Source of the DNA: Dialister pneumosintes
GTDB taxonomy: Bacteria; Bacillota; Negativicutes; Veillonellales; Dialisteraceae
Assembly (NCBI RefSeq): GCF_001717505.1
Contig: NZ_CP017037.1
Coordinates: 1,031,001 to 1,095,000 of the forward strand
Length of the DNA: 64,000 nt
Direction of reading: 5' to 3'
Part shown: in pieces, positions 54,826-62,710 of the stretch
How positions within the stretch are numbered: the first letter of the stretch is position 1
Layout: every line of letters begins with the position of its first letter
Notes under the pieces: model-generated
Databases searched by the model: none
The model's input: only the letters and a program-made list of their open reading frames with translations
What the model was told of the DNA's origin: nothing
Made by a program: the position numbers and the translations under genes

Positions 54826-54861
54826 ATTTAACCATTTTTATAAATTACATCACTCTCAAAC
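54826..54861 (-). repeat. Orphan degenerate CRISPR repeat 1
   Basis: 36 bases matching 31 of 36 of the array repeat. On the minus strand the first 19 bases, GTTTGAGAGTGATGTAATT, are identical to the repeat. All five differences fall in the other part. It lies 530 bases beyond the trailer end of the array. Confidence 0.85.
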
Positions 54862-54927: not shown

Positions 54928-54963
54928 AACATTCTACACATGACAATTACATCACTCGCAAAC
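54928..54963 (-). repeat. Orphan degenerate CRISPR repeat 2
   Basis: On the minus strand GTTTGCGAGTGATGTAATT (54945-54963) differs from the array repeat at one of 19 positions. The rest of the unit has diverged beyond confident alignment. Its end lies 102 bases from that of the first orphan repeat, not a multiple of the 66-base array period. Confidence 0.7.
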
Positions 54964-55241: not shown

Positions 55242-55401
55242 CCCCTTTCAATTGTTTATTCTCAAGCGTGTTAATATATCCTAGCAACACTTCAAATTCC
55301 TCTGAATCTTTTAAGGTATCAACGTCAATCATAAATCCGTCCGTTAAATCCCCTGTGCTATTGCCACAACCAAAAAGTTGCGATAGCGTGTGTTTAACCA
55401 T
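55222..55401 (-). pseudogene. Gene remnant abutting the trailer end of the array
   Basis: An open frame of 59 residues starts at an ATG lying within the terminal CRISPR repeat, runs through non-repeat DNA (SQLFGCGNSTGDLTDGFMID) and stops at 55222, overlapping the start of the 75-residue gene. A shorter start at 55332 is possible (36 residues). The frame is cut off by the array, so it looks like the 3' end of an older gene. No domain was recognised. Confidence 0.35.
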
Positions 55402-56682
55402 ATTCGTGAATTACATCACTCTCAAACGCTACAGCCTGAACGCTATCGAGAACTTCCGTTTAACCATATTCGTGAATTACATCACTCTCAAACTATTAGT
55501 TAAAGGCTTGTTCGTTGGTTCTAGTTTAACCATATTCGTGAATTACATCACTCTCAAACATAGCTAAGAGGCTAAACGTTTCTTATAATGTTTAACCATA
55601 TTCGTGAATTACATCACTCTCAAACCCGGATACATCTCAATAGGTGTTGATTCAGGTTTAACCATATTCGTGAATTACATCACTCTCAAACTGACGAGGC
55701 ATCAAGCATCGACAATCACATGTTTAACCATATTCGTGAATTACATCACTCTCAAACTATATTGATATGCCTGTTACTGTCCCGTGTGTTTAACCATATT
55801 CGTGAATTACATCACTCTCAAACTCGCATCTTCATGTAGCACCTGTCTGAGAGGTTTAACCATATTCGTGAATTACATCACTCTCAAACGACGTTTACCA
55901 CGTAACAATACCTTAGCACGTTTAACCATATTCGTGAATTACATCACTCTCAAACCAATATCAGACACTGCTGTTATTGGAACCCGTTTAACCATATTCG
56001 TGAATTACATCACTCTCAAACGAGGGAATTTATACTTTTATAGTTCCCAAAGTTTAACCATATTCGTGAATTACATCACTCTCAAACTGGCAAGGGCTAC
56101 CGCCTAAAAGTAAATCAGTTTAACCATATTCGTGAATTACATCACTCTCAAACTATCAAATATTAAACTAACACAAAAAATTAGTTTAACCATATTCGTG
56201 AATTACATCACTCTCAAACCTAGCCGCTGACGTGCTTTTGCGAGTACGTGTTTAACCATATTCGTGAATTACATCACTCTCAAACAATGCAACTATTACA
56301 GGAGCTACCACTGGCGTTTAACCATATTCGTGAATTACATCACTCTCAAACTTTGTCCGCAATTTCTTTTCCTTTTTTAATGTTTAACCATATTCGTGAA
56401 TTACATCACTCTCAAACCGACCAGACGAGTGGAGCAACAAAAGTAAAGTTTAACCATATTCGTGAATTACATCACTCTCAAACTTTGTCCGAAATTTCTT
56501 TTCCTTTTTTAATGTTTAACCATATTCGTGAATTACATCACTCTCAAACAGAGCACGTTTATAAAGAGCGTTGACTATCGTTTAACCATATTCGTGAATT
56601 ACATCACTCTCAAACTAATGAAAAAGCAATATGGTTGTCTGGCAAAGTTTAACCATATTCGTGAATTACATCACTCTCAAAC
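55392..56682 (-). CRISPR. Type II-A CRISPR array: 20 repeats, 19 spacers
   Basis: Twenty apparently identical 36-base repeats (minus-strand ends GTTTGAGAGTGATG and ATGGTTAAAC) alternate with 19 spacers. Eighteen spacers are 30 bases; the leader-proximal one (56616-56646) is 31. The repeat begins GTTTGAGA, as in other type II-A systems, and transcription is taken as minus strand with the leader at the high-coordinate end. Spacers at 56352-56381 and 56484-56513 are the same except for one base. No repeat decay is seen within the array, even at the trailer end. Confidence 0.98.
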
Positions 56683-56755
56683 CTCAATTCGCTAGTAGTC
56701 GCAAATCGAGATTCTCTACAAGTGGATACACCCCACCGGATGTCGTAATTCCTTG
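56683..56755 (-). promoter_or_regulatory. CRISPR leader
   Basis: 73 bases between the csn2 stop and the first repeat. On the minus strand the leader ends ...CGAATTGAG directly against the repeat. This is close to the ATTTGAG leader-anchoring sequence used by streptococcal II-A adaptation complexes. No convincing -35/-10 pair was found, so the array promoter may lie further upstream within csn2. Confidence 0.7.
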
Positions 56756-57427
56756 TTAGAAAATCTGACAAAGATCTTCATCAATGATTAAACAACTTTC
56801 TTGTTCTATTGTATCATGACATGCCCCCTCCAGTAACAAAAATGGAATTTCTTCTTCCATCGCACAAGTATAAAACTCTTTTCGCATCGATTTGGGTAAA
56901 TAGATACGGAATTGATTAAATATAAAACAAGTTTTCCCGAATAACTCTGTCCAAAGTTTCATATATTCAATCATCTTTTCCATTACATTTAAATCGGATG
57001 TATCGACTTGTACATGTACGGCTTTAAATAAATTAGCTACATCCGGATTCCAGTCATAGGTAAGTGGTATGGGAAGTTCTTGTTCCAGCTCTTGTAAATA
57101 ACTGAGTACATGCTGCATAACCGCTTTTGTTTTCATATAATGTTGTTCATTATTCGCTTCTTCTTTCAAACGATTACACAGTCTTTTAGTCACAACTGCC
57201 GTTGAAAAATCCATAGTCCAAGGACTTAAGAGAAGTTGTACATGTTTTCGAAAATCTAAAATTTCTCCATCATCAGATAATACAAAAGAACCTTCTTTGC
57301 CTTCCGTTTGTTGATACAATTCCTCTACTACCTGATAGTAGTAAGTAGGATTTTCTATCGATACAATGGGAACACTCTTAAAATCAAATACGATTTGTTT
57401 CTCCCATTCCGGATGTACTAATTTCAT
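56756..57427 (-). CDS. csn2: CRISPR-associated protein Csn2
   Basis: A 223-residue protein, the hallmark of type II-A systems, which forms a ring around DNA ends and takes part in spacer acquisition. It is recognised by position (last cas gene, beside the leader), size and overall character: an N-terminal MKLVHPEWEKQIVFDFKSV, acidic calcium-binding-like stretches, and a C-terminal FLLLEGACHDTIEQ. It overlaps cas2 by 4 bases. Confidence 0.9.
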   Translation of the reverse strand: MKLVHPEWEKQIVFDFKSVPIVSIENPTYYYQVVEELYQQTEGKEGSFVLSDDGEILDFRKHVQLLLSPWTMDFSTAVVTKRLCNRLKEEANNEQHYMKTKAVMQHVLSYLQELEQELPIPLTYDWNPDVANLFKAVHVQVDTSDLNVMEKMIEYMKLWTELFGKTCFIFNQFRIYLPKSMRKEFYTCAMEEEIPFLLLEGACHDTIEQESCLIIDEDLCQIF

Positions 57428-57744
57428 ACAATCACCAACCGTTCATCCGAATCTACCACTTCTTCTTGAACATGACCCGTTACTAATTCCATATTGGCAT
57501 ATTGTTTTTCTGTAATCATCATCATTTGAATAAGACCGTGTTTAGGAGCTTCTATCCGTACATGTCCCATGACTGCTTGTGCAGCAGGCACATTTTGTAC
57601 GATTTTACTGTATACGGATTCTTGCATCATAATAAATCCGTTTCGAATTAAAAATTTCCTAAACTGCGTATACGCTCGCCTATCTGCCAACGTTTCTACA
57701 GGTAAATCAAATAATACCAACACACGCATAAACCTATTCCTCAT
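57424..57744 (-). CDS. cas2: CRISPR-associated endoribonuclease Cas2
   Basis: A 106-residue ferredoxin-fold protein, structural partner of Cas1 in the adaptation complex. The N-terminal strand MRVLVLFDLPVET carries the conserved Asp, followed by YTQFRKFLIRNGF and QESVYSKI. It overlaps cas1 by 11 bases at its start and csn2 by 4 bases at its end, showing tight coupling. No defect is visible. Confidence 0.95.
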   Translation of the reverse strand: MRNRFMRVLVLFDLPVETLADRRAYTQFRKFLIRNGFIMMQESVYSKIVQNVPAAQAVMGHVRIEAPKHGLIQMMMITEKQYANMELVTGHVQEEVVDSDERLVIV

Positions 57745-58616
57745 GCATCATCTCATAACACCGAATGTTTTCCGGTTTTCCTTCTTCTAATGCCGTTAAT
57801 ACACTACGACAGTAAATACCGATGGCTTGTGATACCGTCGTTTTTCTATTTACAATTCTTACTTTTTCATTGAGTACATTAACCAGTTGAGACTTTTCTT
57901 CTTTCCCTATTTGCTTAGGTTTCATAGACAACACTTTATAGTCCACCAAGGGACGAAAAGGCTCCATCAAATCACAGCCTAAATTAAAAGGATTGTATGT
58001 ATTATCATGAAAAATCCCCAACTGTGTAGAATAGCCGGAACTTACAATTTCTCGATTACAAGCCGATAAAATGATGGCATACCCATAATTCATAGCCCCA
58101 TTTTCTACCGACTCTTCACGACGTGAAAAAGTCATCCCCCATAAAGCACTAAAATACACTTTGGCGGCATGTCCTTCTCGATTAGTCGCATCTCCCAGTT
58201 CTACTTGCCGACTATATCCTTTAAGAATTTCAGATTCTATATCTCTCTATATAAAGAAAAAGTACTTCTGCCTGCTTTCGTATTTTCTCACTTACAATCC
58301 GCTGCCATACCTGTTCTTTCCGTGCCGGACTCCATGCAATTTGCTTTCGAAGACAACGACTCGCATCACAACTTCCTGCATAAGAAATCAGTTCTCCTCG
58401 AGGATTTCGTTTTTCATCACAAAAAATAATTTTAATTTTTCGTTGCATACACTGATTCAACCAAGAGGTCGTCAAGGATATAGCCGTCGACTCTAACAAA
58501 ACCGTTTGAATCTCATCCATAAAGATACGATGAGTTTCTTCTCCACGAATCACCATATATCCTAAACTGTAACTCACCTTGGCACGCCGTGTTACAACCA
58601 CCGTTCTCCAACTCAT
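57734..58616 (-). pseudogene. cas1: cas1, split by a +1 frameshift
   Basis: Type II Cas1 integrase of about 290 residues read in two frames. The first frame (58616 to a stop at 58230) gives the N-terminal domain (SWRTVVVTRRAKVSYS) and runs to LFLYIERYRI-stop. The second, open from about 58246 down to 57734, continues EILKGYSRQVELGDATNREG, HAAKVYFSALWG and ENGAMNYGYAIIL, containing the catalytic Glu and the following helix. Removing one base in the TATAGAGAGATATAG tract (about 58240-58252) restores LYIEDIESEILKGY. Either adaptation is dead, the reading is recoded, or this is a sequencing error in a dinucleotide run. The start overlaps the cas9 stop by 4 bases. Confidence 0.88.
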
Positions 58617-61600
58617 GATTTCTTATAGGGGGCTAACGGAATATGCTGTTCATAGAACCCTGTTACCGACTGATGAATAATGTACCAAGAATCTTTGTCC
58701 GATAAATTTTTACTCATATATAATCTTCCAGATTGTTTTGAACTTCCAAGCAAACTCAGATTAGATAATGTAGCATTGCATTGGAATAAATGTAAAATTT
58801 CACTTAGTATTTGACATTTATCTTCTAACGATAGTGCTATATAAGATTCTCTACCATTTTTTAATACATCTCTTTGTGTAGAAAACCGCTTGCTAAAACA
58901 ACTATGTTCTAATTTATCCAAGAATACATCATATAAAGCAAGTAATTGCGATTCTTCCAAATGGTCATAAGAAGTAATCAATGCCTCTTTATTCATCTTT
59001 CTGCGATTAACAAATTTTAATACCGCTTTTAAAGTCATTGCATACCCATTATTAAGAACCAATTCTTCTGCTAATCTACAACCATATTGCTTTCCTGTCT
59101 TTCCTGCTATAGTCACTCTAAATCCATCTACACTAAATAAAGATTGTATTGGAATTTGTTCAATAAGTACTTTAGGATTTTTGAGTTTTCCACCGGTTGA
59201 CATCCAGAGTTCTTCGCAATATTTTTGTTTTTCTTCTAACGTAGTCAGTCTTGCTGCCAGGTGAAGAGGCATCGTTTCGATTACATACACAGGCTTCCCT
59301 TTGTTATCTTCTCCTTCTACGTACATAAAGTAAGCAGTCGATGCACTATTATAGCCTCCATATTTAGAGATGTCTGATATAGCCCCTTCTTTCTTTAAGG
59401 AAACTTGTCCTTTCCCTTTTTTGAGTGGCAATTGATCAAACAATTCCCCTTGTCCTACATAGGACATACGCGTTACCAAGATATTATTTTTATTCATCCA
59501 TCTCGTAACACTTGGCATCATCCCTTCTTCATTGGGTGCCCATGCTACAACTCCATTTCTTTCTACCGTATATTTATAAAGAGCATGTTCATTTAAGCTA
59601 TATATCTGACAATCTTTTACAAAACGTATCGGATTCGATGTAAATTTGGTGTAGTGTACATTCCCTGTCACTATATTCAAGTAAGCATCTTTCGCATGAT
59701 GATAATCGTTCAAATCTCTTACTTTAATAAATTCCCCATACTGACGGAAACGGGAAGTAAGCCCTGCTTTCACGTATACGATAATACTCTTCGGCAGTAC
59801 TCTCTTTAATATTTCAGCTACGGCTTTGGTACTTTGTCTTGTTTCCACTAATTGACGTGCAATAAATTCTGCTTTTTCCGCATCACTAAAAGGAGTATTT
59901 CGAGTTAATCGGAAGTACTTTTCTTTACTGATAAATCCTTTATCACGTAACAGTTTCCAAAAGCCGATTTGTCTTTCTCGAATATTTTTACTTAAAGGAT
60001 AGGTATTACTCTTATCTCTATTTTCCCTATTGTCTACAATAACCAAATTATCCAAGCTGTCATCTTTCGTCTGTGATTGTGGATAAATATGGTCTCTATC
60101 ATACAACTGCCCTTTTAGTAACGCTCCTAAATCAATCGGTTTTCCGGTGTACATACATTTACCCATTTGTGTATAGTACAAAAACAGTTTATTGCTCCTA
60201 AGTTGTGAATCGGACTTAGATTCAATTTCTTCAACCCAGTCTTTACTCTCACGATTGCTCCATGAACGAACATCCTCTTTACACTTCTTATATAGTTCAA
60301 TCAGTTGCTTCTTTCTAGAGTCCGTCCTTCCTTTATCCGGTTGTTTATCTCTCGCCATTTCTATAAATATACGAGCCGGCTCAGCTCCCATAATATGGGT
60401 AATTTCTTTGATGATTTTTAAAGTTTGCCAAATCGGCCTTTTTACTGCAGGAGATACGGTCAATTCTTTTACAGTTTCATAACTTAATACAGTATTTCCA
60501 ACTAACTCTTTATTTGCTTCACTAATCGCTGCGCTATAGCCATATGTCGAACTTAAAATTTCCATTAAATTTAAAGAAGTCTTCTTTAAAGCAGTAATAA
60601 TGTTCATAATTTCGCCGGTAGATGTATCTACCAACACTTGTACATCATCGGTTACTCTAGGTGTAATTTCAGTTAAAAATTCTTTAGAGAATCGTCCCCA
60701 TCCTGTATAACGAAGTTTGGATAATTGTTTGGCGACAGGTTCGGATACTATACGCATTAAATACTTTTTAAGTATCTTTTTATCCATGCTGAAAAGAGTG
60801 ATGGCTTTAATGATTTCTTCCGCTTTGTCTCTGGTAAAATCTTCTCCTAATATATTTTTTAAATCAATCCAAGGTGCTAACGAAGACTTAAACCCACCAT
60901 CTAAACCTTTAATTTCTACTGCTTCTTCTTTATCAATGCCCTCTTTAATTAAGAACTTTGAGAATTTACTAAGAGTTACTTTTTTCGTTGTAAGAAACAG
61001 TTCCTTCCATAATTTTTCTTTTTGTTCTTCTGTTAAATACGTACCCGCTTTACCAATTTTTACATTATTTAATTCATTAAATAACATATATTCCGTATAT
61101 AACAAAGAGTTCTTAGGTAATACATCTTTCCCAAGCAAATAGGTACATTTATTAGTCATACGAGTAATAAATTTTTCTGCACTTTTTTCTTCATTAATAC
61201 GTTCGTTAAAATTCCACGGTAAAATACGACCTTCCTTATCCGTATGCACTGCCCAACTCTTATCGGAATGTCTATTTAAAGGTCCTACATAGAACGGAAT
61301 TCTAAAAGTAAGTAATTGCTTGATTTTTTCACTAATTGTTCCATAAGCATCTTTTTCCATAAGGAAAGGTAAATACTGTTCTGCTTTTTTTAAGATGATA
61401 TCTAATTCCTGCTCCTGCAATTGATACGGAATGATGCCGTTAATAGTGGAAACTGCTTTCGGTAAGAAATTTTCTGCTTCTATTTTTGATAATACATATA
61501 TTTTATCTTCACAATCCGGAAGTTTACTTATTTCTTTTTTCAAAAACTTATAAAATTCTTCCGTACTTCCACGTTTTTCAATAACCAGTTTTTCACCATG

Positions 61601-62710
61601 AATCATACAGCTACCAACATAAGCACTGTAACTATCCTTATCAGTTCCTCTAAACAGCTTTCTATATAAAGATTTATCTTGTCGTGTAAGCCTTTTTAAT
61701 ACTTCTAAATCTTTTTTATGGGTTTCATATATTGCAATCTTGGCTTCTGATAATGTTTTTCTATCTCCCATGAGCTCGGCTAACAAAGACCAATCATAAA
61801 GCATTTTAGCTGCATAAACTAAATCAAATCGTTGTTCCAGTACACTTTGCAAGTCCGATTCTTTTTCTTCATAAACGGCAGTACTAAAACTAATTTTACT
61901 ATCTTTAATTTCGAATACTTTTAATGCTTCTTTCAAAGATTCATCCATAAATAACGTACTTAAATTAGCGGTTCCACCACATATTAACTGAACTACTTCT
62001 TTAAGTTGTTTATCTTTTATTACATCCCAAACTTGTAATATTTTCTCTGTTTTTTCTCTCTTTGATAGACTCTTATCTTTAAGTATAATTTGAATTTTTT
62101 CTACATGACCGACCGGAATTTCTTTTTGTAATAATTCCTTAATCGCATTAGTTAAAGCTATATAAGATTCATCAAAACCGGAAGTTTCTTGATTAGATAA
62201 ATCATAATTTTCAAGCAGGAAGTGTCCACGATGCTTAATAATATGATGAATAGCTAAATACACTAGACGCACGTCAAAAGATTTATTTTCCGTCATCAAT
62301 GCATAACGCAAATGATAAATTGTAGGATAAGCCTTGTGATATGCTTTATCATCAAAATCTTCATCATTAAAAAGAGTATTCGGCTGGTCTATACTTTTAT
62401 CTTCTTGCCATAATCGACTTTCATGGAGTCTTATAAAAAATCCGGGATCTACTTTGCAAATTTCTTTTGCAAATAATTCTTGTAAAAGAGCCAGTCGCTG
62501 CTTACGACGCTGTATTCTGCGACGTGCAGTTCTATGAAGACGTCTATCTGCTGCCGTCTGTGCTTCCTCAAAAAGACGAACGCCCCATAAGGCCTTTCCA
62601 TGTTTTTTGACAACATTATAAGAGGCATCCGTTACCGCCCAACCAACAGAAGAGGTTCCCATATCCAAACCGATGTAATAAGGTTGTTTGTTCGTCTTAG
62701 CCGTATCCAT
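58613..62710 (-). CDS. cas9: CRISPR-associated endonuclease Cas9 (type II-A)
   Basis: A 1365-residue RNA-guided nuclease with all catalytic parts intact. RuvC-I is YYIGLDMGTSSVGWAVTD with Asp16. The Arg-rich bridge helix is RRLHRTARRRIQRRKQRLAL. RuvC-II is RIFIEMARDK. The HNH site is YDRDHIYPQSQ with a downstream NLVIVDNRENRDKSN. RuvC-III is HHAKDAYLNIV. The length matches S. pyogenes-type II-A enzymes (about 1370). AGGAG (62719-62723) precedes the ATG and lies inside the divergent tracrRNA promoter. The PAM is not known. Confidence 0.97.
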   Translation of the reverse strand: MDTAKTNKQPYYIGLDMGTSSVGWAVTDASYNVVKKHGKALWGVRLFEEAQTAADRRLHRTARRRIQRRKQRLALLQELFAKEICKVDPGFFIRLHESRLWQEDKSIDQPNTLFNDEDFDDKAYHKAYPTIYHLRYALMTENKSFDVRLVYLAIHHIIKHRGHFLLENYDLSNQETSGFDESYIALTNAIKELLQKEIPVGHVEKIQIILKDKSLSKREKTEKILQVWDVIKDKQLKEVVQLICGGTANLSTLFMDESLKEALKVFEIKDSKISFSTAVYEEKESDLQSVLEQRFDLVYAAKMLYDWSLLAELMGDRKTLSEAKIAIYETHKKDLEVLKRLTRQDKSLYRKLFRGTDKDSYSAYVGSCMIHGEKLVIEKRGSTEEFYKFLKKEISKLPDCEDKIYVLSKIEAENFLPKAVSTINGIIPYQLQEQELDIILKKAEQYLPFLMEKDAYGTISEKIKQLLTFRIPFYVGPLNRHSDKSWAVHTDKEGRILPWNFNERINEEKSAEKFITRMTNKCTYLLGKDVLPKNSLLYTEYMLFNELNNVKIGKAGTYLTEEQKEKLWKELFLTTKKVTLSKFSKFLIKEGIDKEEAVEIKGLDGGFKSSLAPWIDLKNILGEDFTRDKAEEIIKAITLFSMDKKILKKYLMRIVSEPVAKQLSKLRYTGWGRFSKEFLTEITPRVTDDVQVLVDTSTGEIMNIITALKKTSLNLMEILSSTYGYSAAISEANKELVGNTVLSYETVKELTVSPAVKRPIWQTLKIIKEITHIMGAEPARIFIEMARDKQPDKGRTDSRKKQLIELYKKCKEDVRSWSNRESKDWVEEIESKSDSQLRSNKLFLYYTQMGKCMYTGKPIDLGALLKGQLYDRDHIYPQSQTKDDSLDNLVIVDNRENRDKSNTYPLSKNIRERQIGFWKLLRDKGFISKEKYFRLTRNTPFSDAEKAEFIARQLVETRQSTKAVAEILKRVLPKSIIVYVKAGLTSRFRQYGEFIKVRDLNDYHHAKDAYLNIVTGNVHYTKFTSNPIRFVKDCQIYSLNEHALYKYTVERNGVVAWAPNEEGMMPSVTRWMNKNNILVTRMSYVGQGELFDQLPLKKGKGQVSLKKEGAISDISKYGGYNSASTAYFMYVEGEDNKGKPVYVIETMPLHLAARLTTLEEKQKYCEELWMSTGGKLKNPKVLIEQIPIQSLFSVDGFRVTIAGKTGKQYGCRLAEELVLNNGYAMTLKAVLKFVNRRKMNKEALITSYDHLEESQLLALYDVFLDKLEHSCFSKRFSTQRDVLKNGRESYIALSLEDKCQILSEILHLFQCNATLSNLSLLGSSKQSGRLYMSKNLSDKDSWYIIHQSVTGFYEQHIPLAPYKKS

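What the first reader, a model, noticed from the sequence alone, without database searches (positions are those of the whole stretch)
56352..56513. Twin spacers for one protospacer differing by a single seed base
The spacers at 56352-56381 and 56484-56513 match at 29 of 30 positions; the only change is C at 56360 against A at 56492. In crRNA orientation it is 9 bases from the PAM-side end, inside the Cas9 seed. The registers are identical, so both came from the same protospacer position and PAM. The leader is at the high-coordinate end, so the A-variant is the younger spacer. This reads as immunisation, a phage seed escape mutation, then re-immunisation against the escaper. In one frame of the spacer the change is Ala to Ser within KKGKEIADK.
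Basis: partly seen in the sequence, partly recalled or inferred. Interest (0 to 1): 0.78.

Follow-up and report, generated by a model that had tools for sequence, protein, structure and literature searches.

The report
Twin CRISPR spacers differing in seed
A bacterium's CRISPR memory holds the same 30-letter viral snippet twice with one letter changed at a spot that matters for recognition, most likely because it re-vaccinated itself against a mutated virus; a survey of 115 arrays found five other one-letter pairs, all changed in the same critical stretch.

Summary
The type II-A array at 55392-56682 has 20 identical repeats and 19 spacers. Spacers S03 (56484-56513) and S05 (56352-56381) match at 29 of 30 bases, in the same register. 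The change is 9 nt from the PAM-side end. The leader is at the high-coordinate end, so S03 is younger. No target was found in the own genome, 380 Negativicutes genomes, IMG/VR or GenBank phages and plasmids, so immunisation, escape and re-immunisation cannot be shown directly here.

I tested the prediction on 115 type II arrays (2,054 spacers). Six independent one-substitution twins exist, this one included. All six differ within the 9 PAM-proximal bases (positions 9, 5, 3, 3, 1, 1; p about 0.001 against uniform, 0.004 without this window). More diverged twins (3-6 changes) show no seed bias, and most are codon-periodic, as expected of homologous protospacers from related phages. Exact duplicates are mostly tandem or block copies; near-twins are mostly isolated.

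Re-acquisition of one protospacer from a seed variant is therefore the best explanation, over array duplication plus mutation. Whether the variant arose by escape from this host's own older spacer is inferred. Precedent: Legionella type I-C (PMC5071653). cas1 in the window reads as frameshifted.

The parts
55392..56682 (-). CRISPR array, 20 identical 36-nt repeats (crRNA sense GTTTGAGAGTGATGTAATTCACGAATATGGTTAAAC), 19 spacers
56484..56513 (-). S03, younger twin spacer ATTAAAAAAGGAAAAGAAATTTCGGACAAA
56352..56381 (-). S05, older twin spacer ATTAAAAAAGGAAAAGAAATTGCGGACAAA
56418..56447 (-). S04, unrelated spacer between the twins
56492..56492 (-). the differing base in S03 (A on the plus strand; T in the crRNA), 9 nt from the PAM-side end
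56360..56360 (-). the differing base in S05 (C on the plus strand; G in the crRNA)
56683..56755 (-). leader between the csn2 stop and the first repeat; leader-anchoring-like end GAATTGAG
56756..57427 (-). csn2 (type II-A)
   Evidence: E 2.8e-69
57424..57744 (-). cas2
   Evidence: E 1.6e-41
57734..58616 (-). cas1, split by a frameshift between 58160 and 58259 (100 nt where three relatives have 99)
58613..62710 (-). cas9, 1365 aa
   Evidence: E 8.9e-260
56154..56183 (-). S08, exact match to Microviridae PV594036.1 (human nasopharynx)
55758..55787 (-). S14, 29/30 match to the same microvirus, rep gene

Best explanation
S03 and S05 are two separate Cas9/Csn2-type acquisitions of the same PAM-anchored 30-nt protospacer, taken at different times from two variants of one phage lineage that differ at one seed base. 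The older spacer (G allele) gave immunity. A phage variant with a substitution 9 nt from the PAM, poorly recognised by the old guide, later infected the lineage, and the same PAM site was sampled again. The new spacer was kept because the old one did not cover the variant. Shown: the two spacers, their order, their register, and the general seed bias of such twins. Inferred: the phage, the PAM, that the variant arose by escape rather than standing variation, and loss of cleavage by the older guide.
For: Twin confirmed with S04 between. Leader polarity. In 115 type II arrays, all six independent one-substitution twins differ within 9 nt of the PAM end; p = 0.0014 for the 10-nt seed, 0.004 without this window, 0.012 without the two position-1 pairs. 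One- and two-substitution twins together: 10 of 12 substitutions in the seed, p = 5e-4. Diverged twins: 14 of 34 substitutions in the seed, not biased, and six of seven pairs are fully or almost fully codon-periodic, so same-site resampling of related phages happens in nature. Twins of unequal length share the PAM-side register (L098, 29 vs 30 nt; L209, 29 vs 30 nt), as independent acquisition predicts. Near-twins are isolated in 7 of 9 cases, exact duplicates in 8 of 23 events (Fisher p = 0.049). All 20 repeats are identical (720 nt without a change), so point mutation inside the array is rare.
Against: No phage with either allele was found in IMG/VR, GenBank phages, plasmids or 380 Negativicutes genomes. 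The survey holds only six one-substitution pairs. Eight isolated exact duplicates show that a second copy of a spacer can appear without any escape. The change here is the most PAM-distal of the six and lies outside a strict 6-8 nt seed.
Confidence: 0.6

Rival explanations
1. Two acquisitions from a polymorphic phage population at a favoured PAM site, with no escape: the variant was standing diversity and the older spacer may still work on it.
For: Diverged, mostly codon-periodic same-register twins exist (L109, L209, L238, L244), so the same site of related phages is sampled repeatedly. Two of the two-substitution pairs (positions 5/14 and 3/12) look like codon drift.
Against: Neutral variants should fall anywhere in the 30 nt; one-substitution twins fall only in the PAM-proximal 9.
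Confidence: 0.22
2. Duplication of S05 inside the array by recombination between repeats, loss of a neighbour, then a point mutation in one copy.
For: Exact tandem and block duplicates are common in related arrays: 15 of 23 exact-duplicate events. L147 shows a tandem cluster with one variant copy.
Against: Needs a block copy of two units, deletion of one S04 and a mutation, against one acquisition. Repeats are invariant over 720 nt. Mutation of copies would not favour the seed.
Confidence: 0.12
3. The single-base difference is a sequencing or assembly error, and the twins are an exact duplicate.
For: cas1 in the same assembly carries a one-base frameshift that could be a sequencing error; reads were not available.
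Against: Both copies sit between unique spacers in a single-contig genome; an indel-prone assembly would rarely give a clean substitution.
Confidence: 0.06

Closest known systems
Legionella pneumophila ST222 type I-C spacers against LME-1 (PMC5071653)
   Same: Two spacers of one array target overlapping sequence; the older one has a seed or PAM mismatch to the present element and the newer one matches perfectly; read by its authors as escape followed by re-acquisition.
   Different: Type I-C with primed acquisition, overlapping rather than same-register protospacers, and the target element is known. Here it is type II-A, same register, target unknown.
Laboratory type II-A co-evolution in staphylococcal colonies (PMC7105378)
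   Same: Type II-A; phage escape by seed or PAM mutation precedes acquisition of further spacers.
   Different: The passages read do not describe the same protospacer being taken again with the mutation; only term matches were read.
One-substitution twin spacers in other type II arrays, e.g. Intestinimonas butyriciproducens L098 spacers 3 and 9
   Same: Isolated twins with one substitution in the seed (position 5 from the PAM end) and the same PAM-side register.
   Different: Spacer lengths differ (29 and 30 nt), so a copying origin is less likely there than in the window.

Membership tests
Type II-A CRISPR-Cas | cas9, cas1, cas2 and csn2 in one operon next to the array | tested here: met
   cas1 reads as frameshifted
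Type II-A CRISPR-Cas | 36-nt repeat beginning GTTTNAGA in crRNA sense and about 30-nt spacers | tested here: met
Type II-A CRISPR-Cas | leader-anchoring sequence (ATTTGAG-like) at the leader-repeat junction | tested here: met
   GAATTGAG here; GGTTTGAG, GATTTGAC, AATTTGAG in L136, L137, L157
Type II-A CRISPR-Cas | tracrRNA with anti-repeat | tested here: inconclusive
   repeat-like stretches at 54826 and 54945, no convincing fold, no Rfam tracrRNA match
Escape and re-immunisation twin (as in Legionella LME-1) | two spacers for the same site, the younger differing in the seed | tested here: met
   position 9 counts as seed only if the seed is taken as 10-12 nt
Escape and re-immunisation twin (as in Legionella LME-1) | known target carrying the younger allele next to a functional PAM | tested here: inconclusive
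   no target found:
Escape and re-immunisation twin (as in Legionella LME-1) | older guide fails to protect against the variant | not testable with these tools
   needs an interference assay

The most novel reading that the evidence does not exclude
Isolated one-substitution twin spacers in type II arrays are a general fossil record of seed escape followed by re-immunisation at the same protospacer, so the rate and position of natural escape from Cas9 can be read from host genomes alone, without the phage.
Probability: 0.45. Interest if true: 0.62.

Novelty: new member of a known kind. Interest (0 to 1): 0.42.

Why it matters
Seed escape from Cas9 is well studied in the laboratory, but natural cases of escape followed by renewed immunity are usually shown only when the invading element is in hand. 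If twins of this sort are dependable markers, thousands of existing genomes can be screened for them, giving the rate of re-immunisation and an in-nature map of the positions at which phages escape Cas9.

Tried and rejected
Exact and relaxed searches for the protospacer: own genome, genus, family and class at up to 3 mismatches; IMG/VR with a 27-mer, a 20-mer (hits in unrelated phage genes, mismatching elsewhere), a peptide-level pattern KKGKEI(A/S/T/P)DK (one large protein family shared by three contigs, 5-6 mismatches, no tie to this host) and a seed-plus-AT pattern (9-13 mismatches overall). BLAST of the spacer and the whole array against phages and plasmids. The microvirus hit by S08 and S14 does not carry the twin site: its best match has 10 mismatches, no better than shuffles. 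Its 80 IMG/VR relatives gave no spacer match at 6 mismatches or fewer. The exact repeat was not found in other genomes or IMG/VR. IMG/VR had no match for two of the survey twins. A same-species array comparison was not possible: one genome per species is held.

Full report
Observation. The array was re-read from sequence. It has 20 identical 36-nt repeats and 19 spacers, numbered S01 (leader side, next to csn2) to S19. S03 and S05 differ at one of 30 positions, 9 nt from the PAM-side end of the crRNA, with S04 between them. No other pair in the array is similar. The neighbourhood is a type II-A locus: cas9, cas1, cas2 and csn2 on the minus strand. The leader side was confirmed from the junction sequence of related arrays, so S03 is younger than S05.

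Target. No protospacer was found for the twin anywhere searched. Two other spacers do have a target: S08 (30/30) and S14 (29/30) match a Microviridae genome from a human nasopharyngeal swab, PV594036.1, and S12 matches its major capsid gene at 25/30. The 3' flanks GTGATG, AGCATT and ATGATT share AT at positions 4-5, a weak hint of a PAM NNNAT. The twin does not come from this virus as sequenced.

Comparative test. If a twin records seed escape followed by re-immunisation, the difference should lie in the PAM-proximal seed; if it records duplication plus mutation, or neutral resampling, it should lie anywhere. Arrays were extracted, oriented by repeat sequence and reduced to 115 distinct arrays with 2,054 spacers. 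Six independent one-substitution twins exist: this window (position 9 from the PAM end), L098 (5), L147 (3), L209 (3), L237 (1) and L250 (1). All lie in the last 9 nt. Under a uniform expectation p is 0.0007 for 9 nt, 0.0014 for 10 nt and 0.004 for 12 nt. Without this window p is 0.004 (10 nt), and without the two position-1 pairs, which could reflect imprecise ends, 0.012. Three two-substitution twins each have at least one change within 6 nt.

Controls. Seven diverged twins (3-6 substitutions) show no seed bias (14 of 34), and six of the seven have all or all but one of their changes in one codon phase, as expected of homologous genes of related phages sampled at the same PAM. Between different arrays no spacer pair has fewer than 8 mismatches, so the within-array twins are not chance. 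Exact duplicates are mostly tandem or block copies (15 of 23 events), while near-twins are mostly isolated (7 of 9; Fisher p = 0.049). Two of the near-twin pairs have unequal lengths but the same PAM-side register (L098; L209 31/32), as separate acquisitions would give.

Reading. The best explanation is a second acquisition of the same PAM-anchored site from a seed variant. That the variant was selected by this host's older spacer is likely but not shown; standing variation in the phage, with the younger spacer kept because only it covers the variant, would leave the same trace. Duplication plus mutation needs three events and predicts no seed bias.

Known ground. The idea is not new: in Legionella type I-C arrays, older spacers with seed or PAM mismatches are followed by newer perfect spacers for overlapping sequence (PMC5071653), and in type II-A laboratory co-evolution seed or PAM escapers precede further acquisition (PMC7105378). 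My literature searches did not turn up a survey of substitution positions in twin spacers, but the library is open-access only, so absence means little.

Limits. Six pairs are few; II-C arrays were pooled with II-A; orientation rests on repeat sequence, and one reference repeat used for scoring came from one of the twin arrays (L250), although that array also lies downstream of and in line with its cas9; genomes were sampled, not exhaustive; no reads, sister strains or phage were available.

Noticed in passing
window 57734-58616 (-): cas1 is split in two frames; the stretch between the conserved halves is 100 nt against 99 nt in three relatives. If real, spacer acquisition is off and the array is frozen; it may also be a sequencing error.
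   Followed up: partly
window 56154-56183, 55758-55787, 55890-55919: S08, S14 and, weakly, S12 target one Microviridae genome from a human nasopharyngeal swab (PV594036.1), which links that virus group to this Negativicutes host.
   Followed up: yes
L008 3' flanks of the S08, S14 and S12 sites: Flanks GTGATG, AGCATT and ATGATT share AT at positions 4-5, a possible PAM NNNAT for this Cas9.
   Followed up: partly
window 54826-54861 and 54945-54963: Two degenerate repeat-like stretches beyond the trailer end, candidates for a tracrRNA anti-repeat or old repeats; no convincing fold or Rfam match.
   Followed up: partly
L109 spacers 10/35; L238 6/39 and 11/46; L244 24/53; L209 31/32: Within-array twins with 3-6 changes, mostly in one codon phase: the same protospacer of related phages sampled twice at a long interval in the array.
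   Followed up: yes
L147 spacers 4-7: Tandem run of three identical spacers and one variant differing at position 3 from the PAM end.
   Followed up: partly
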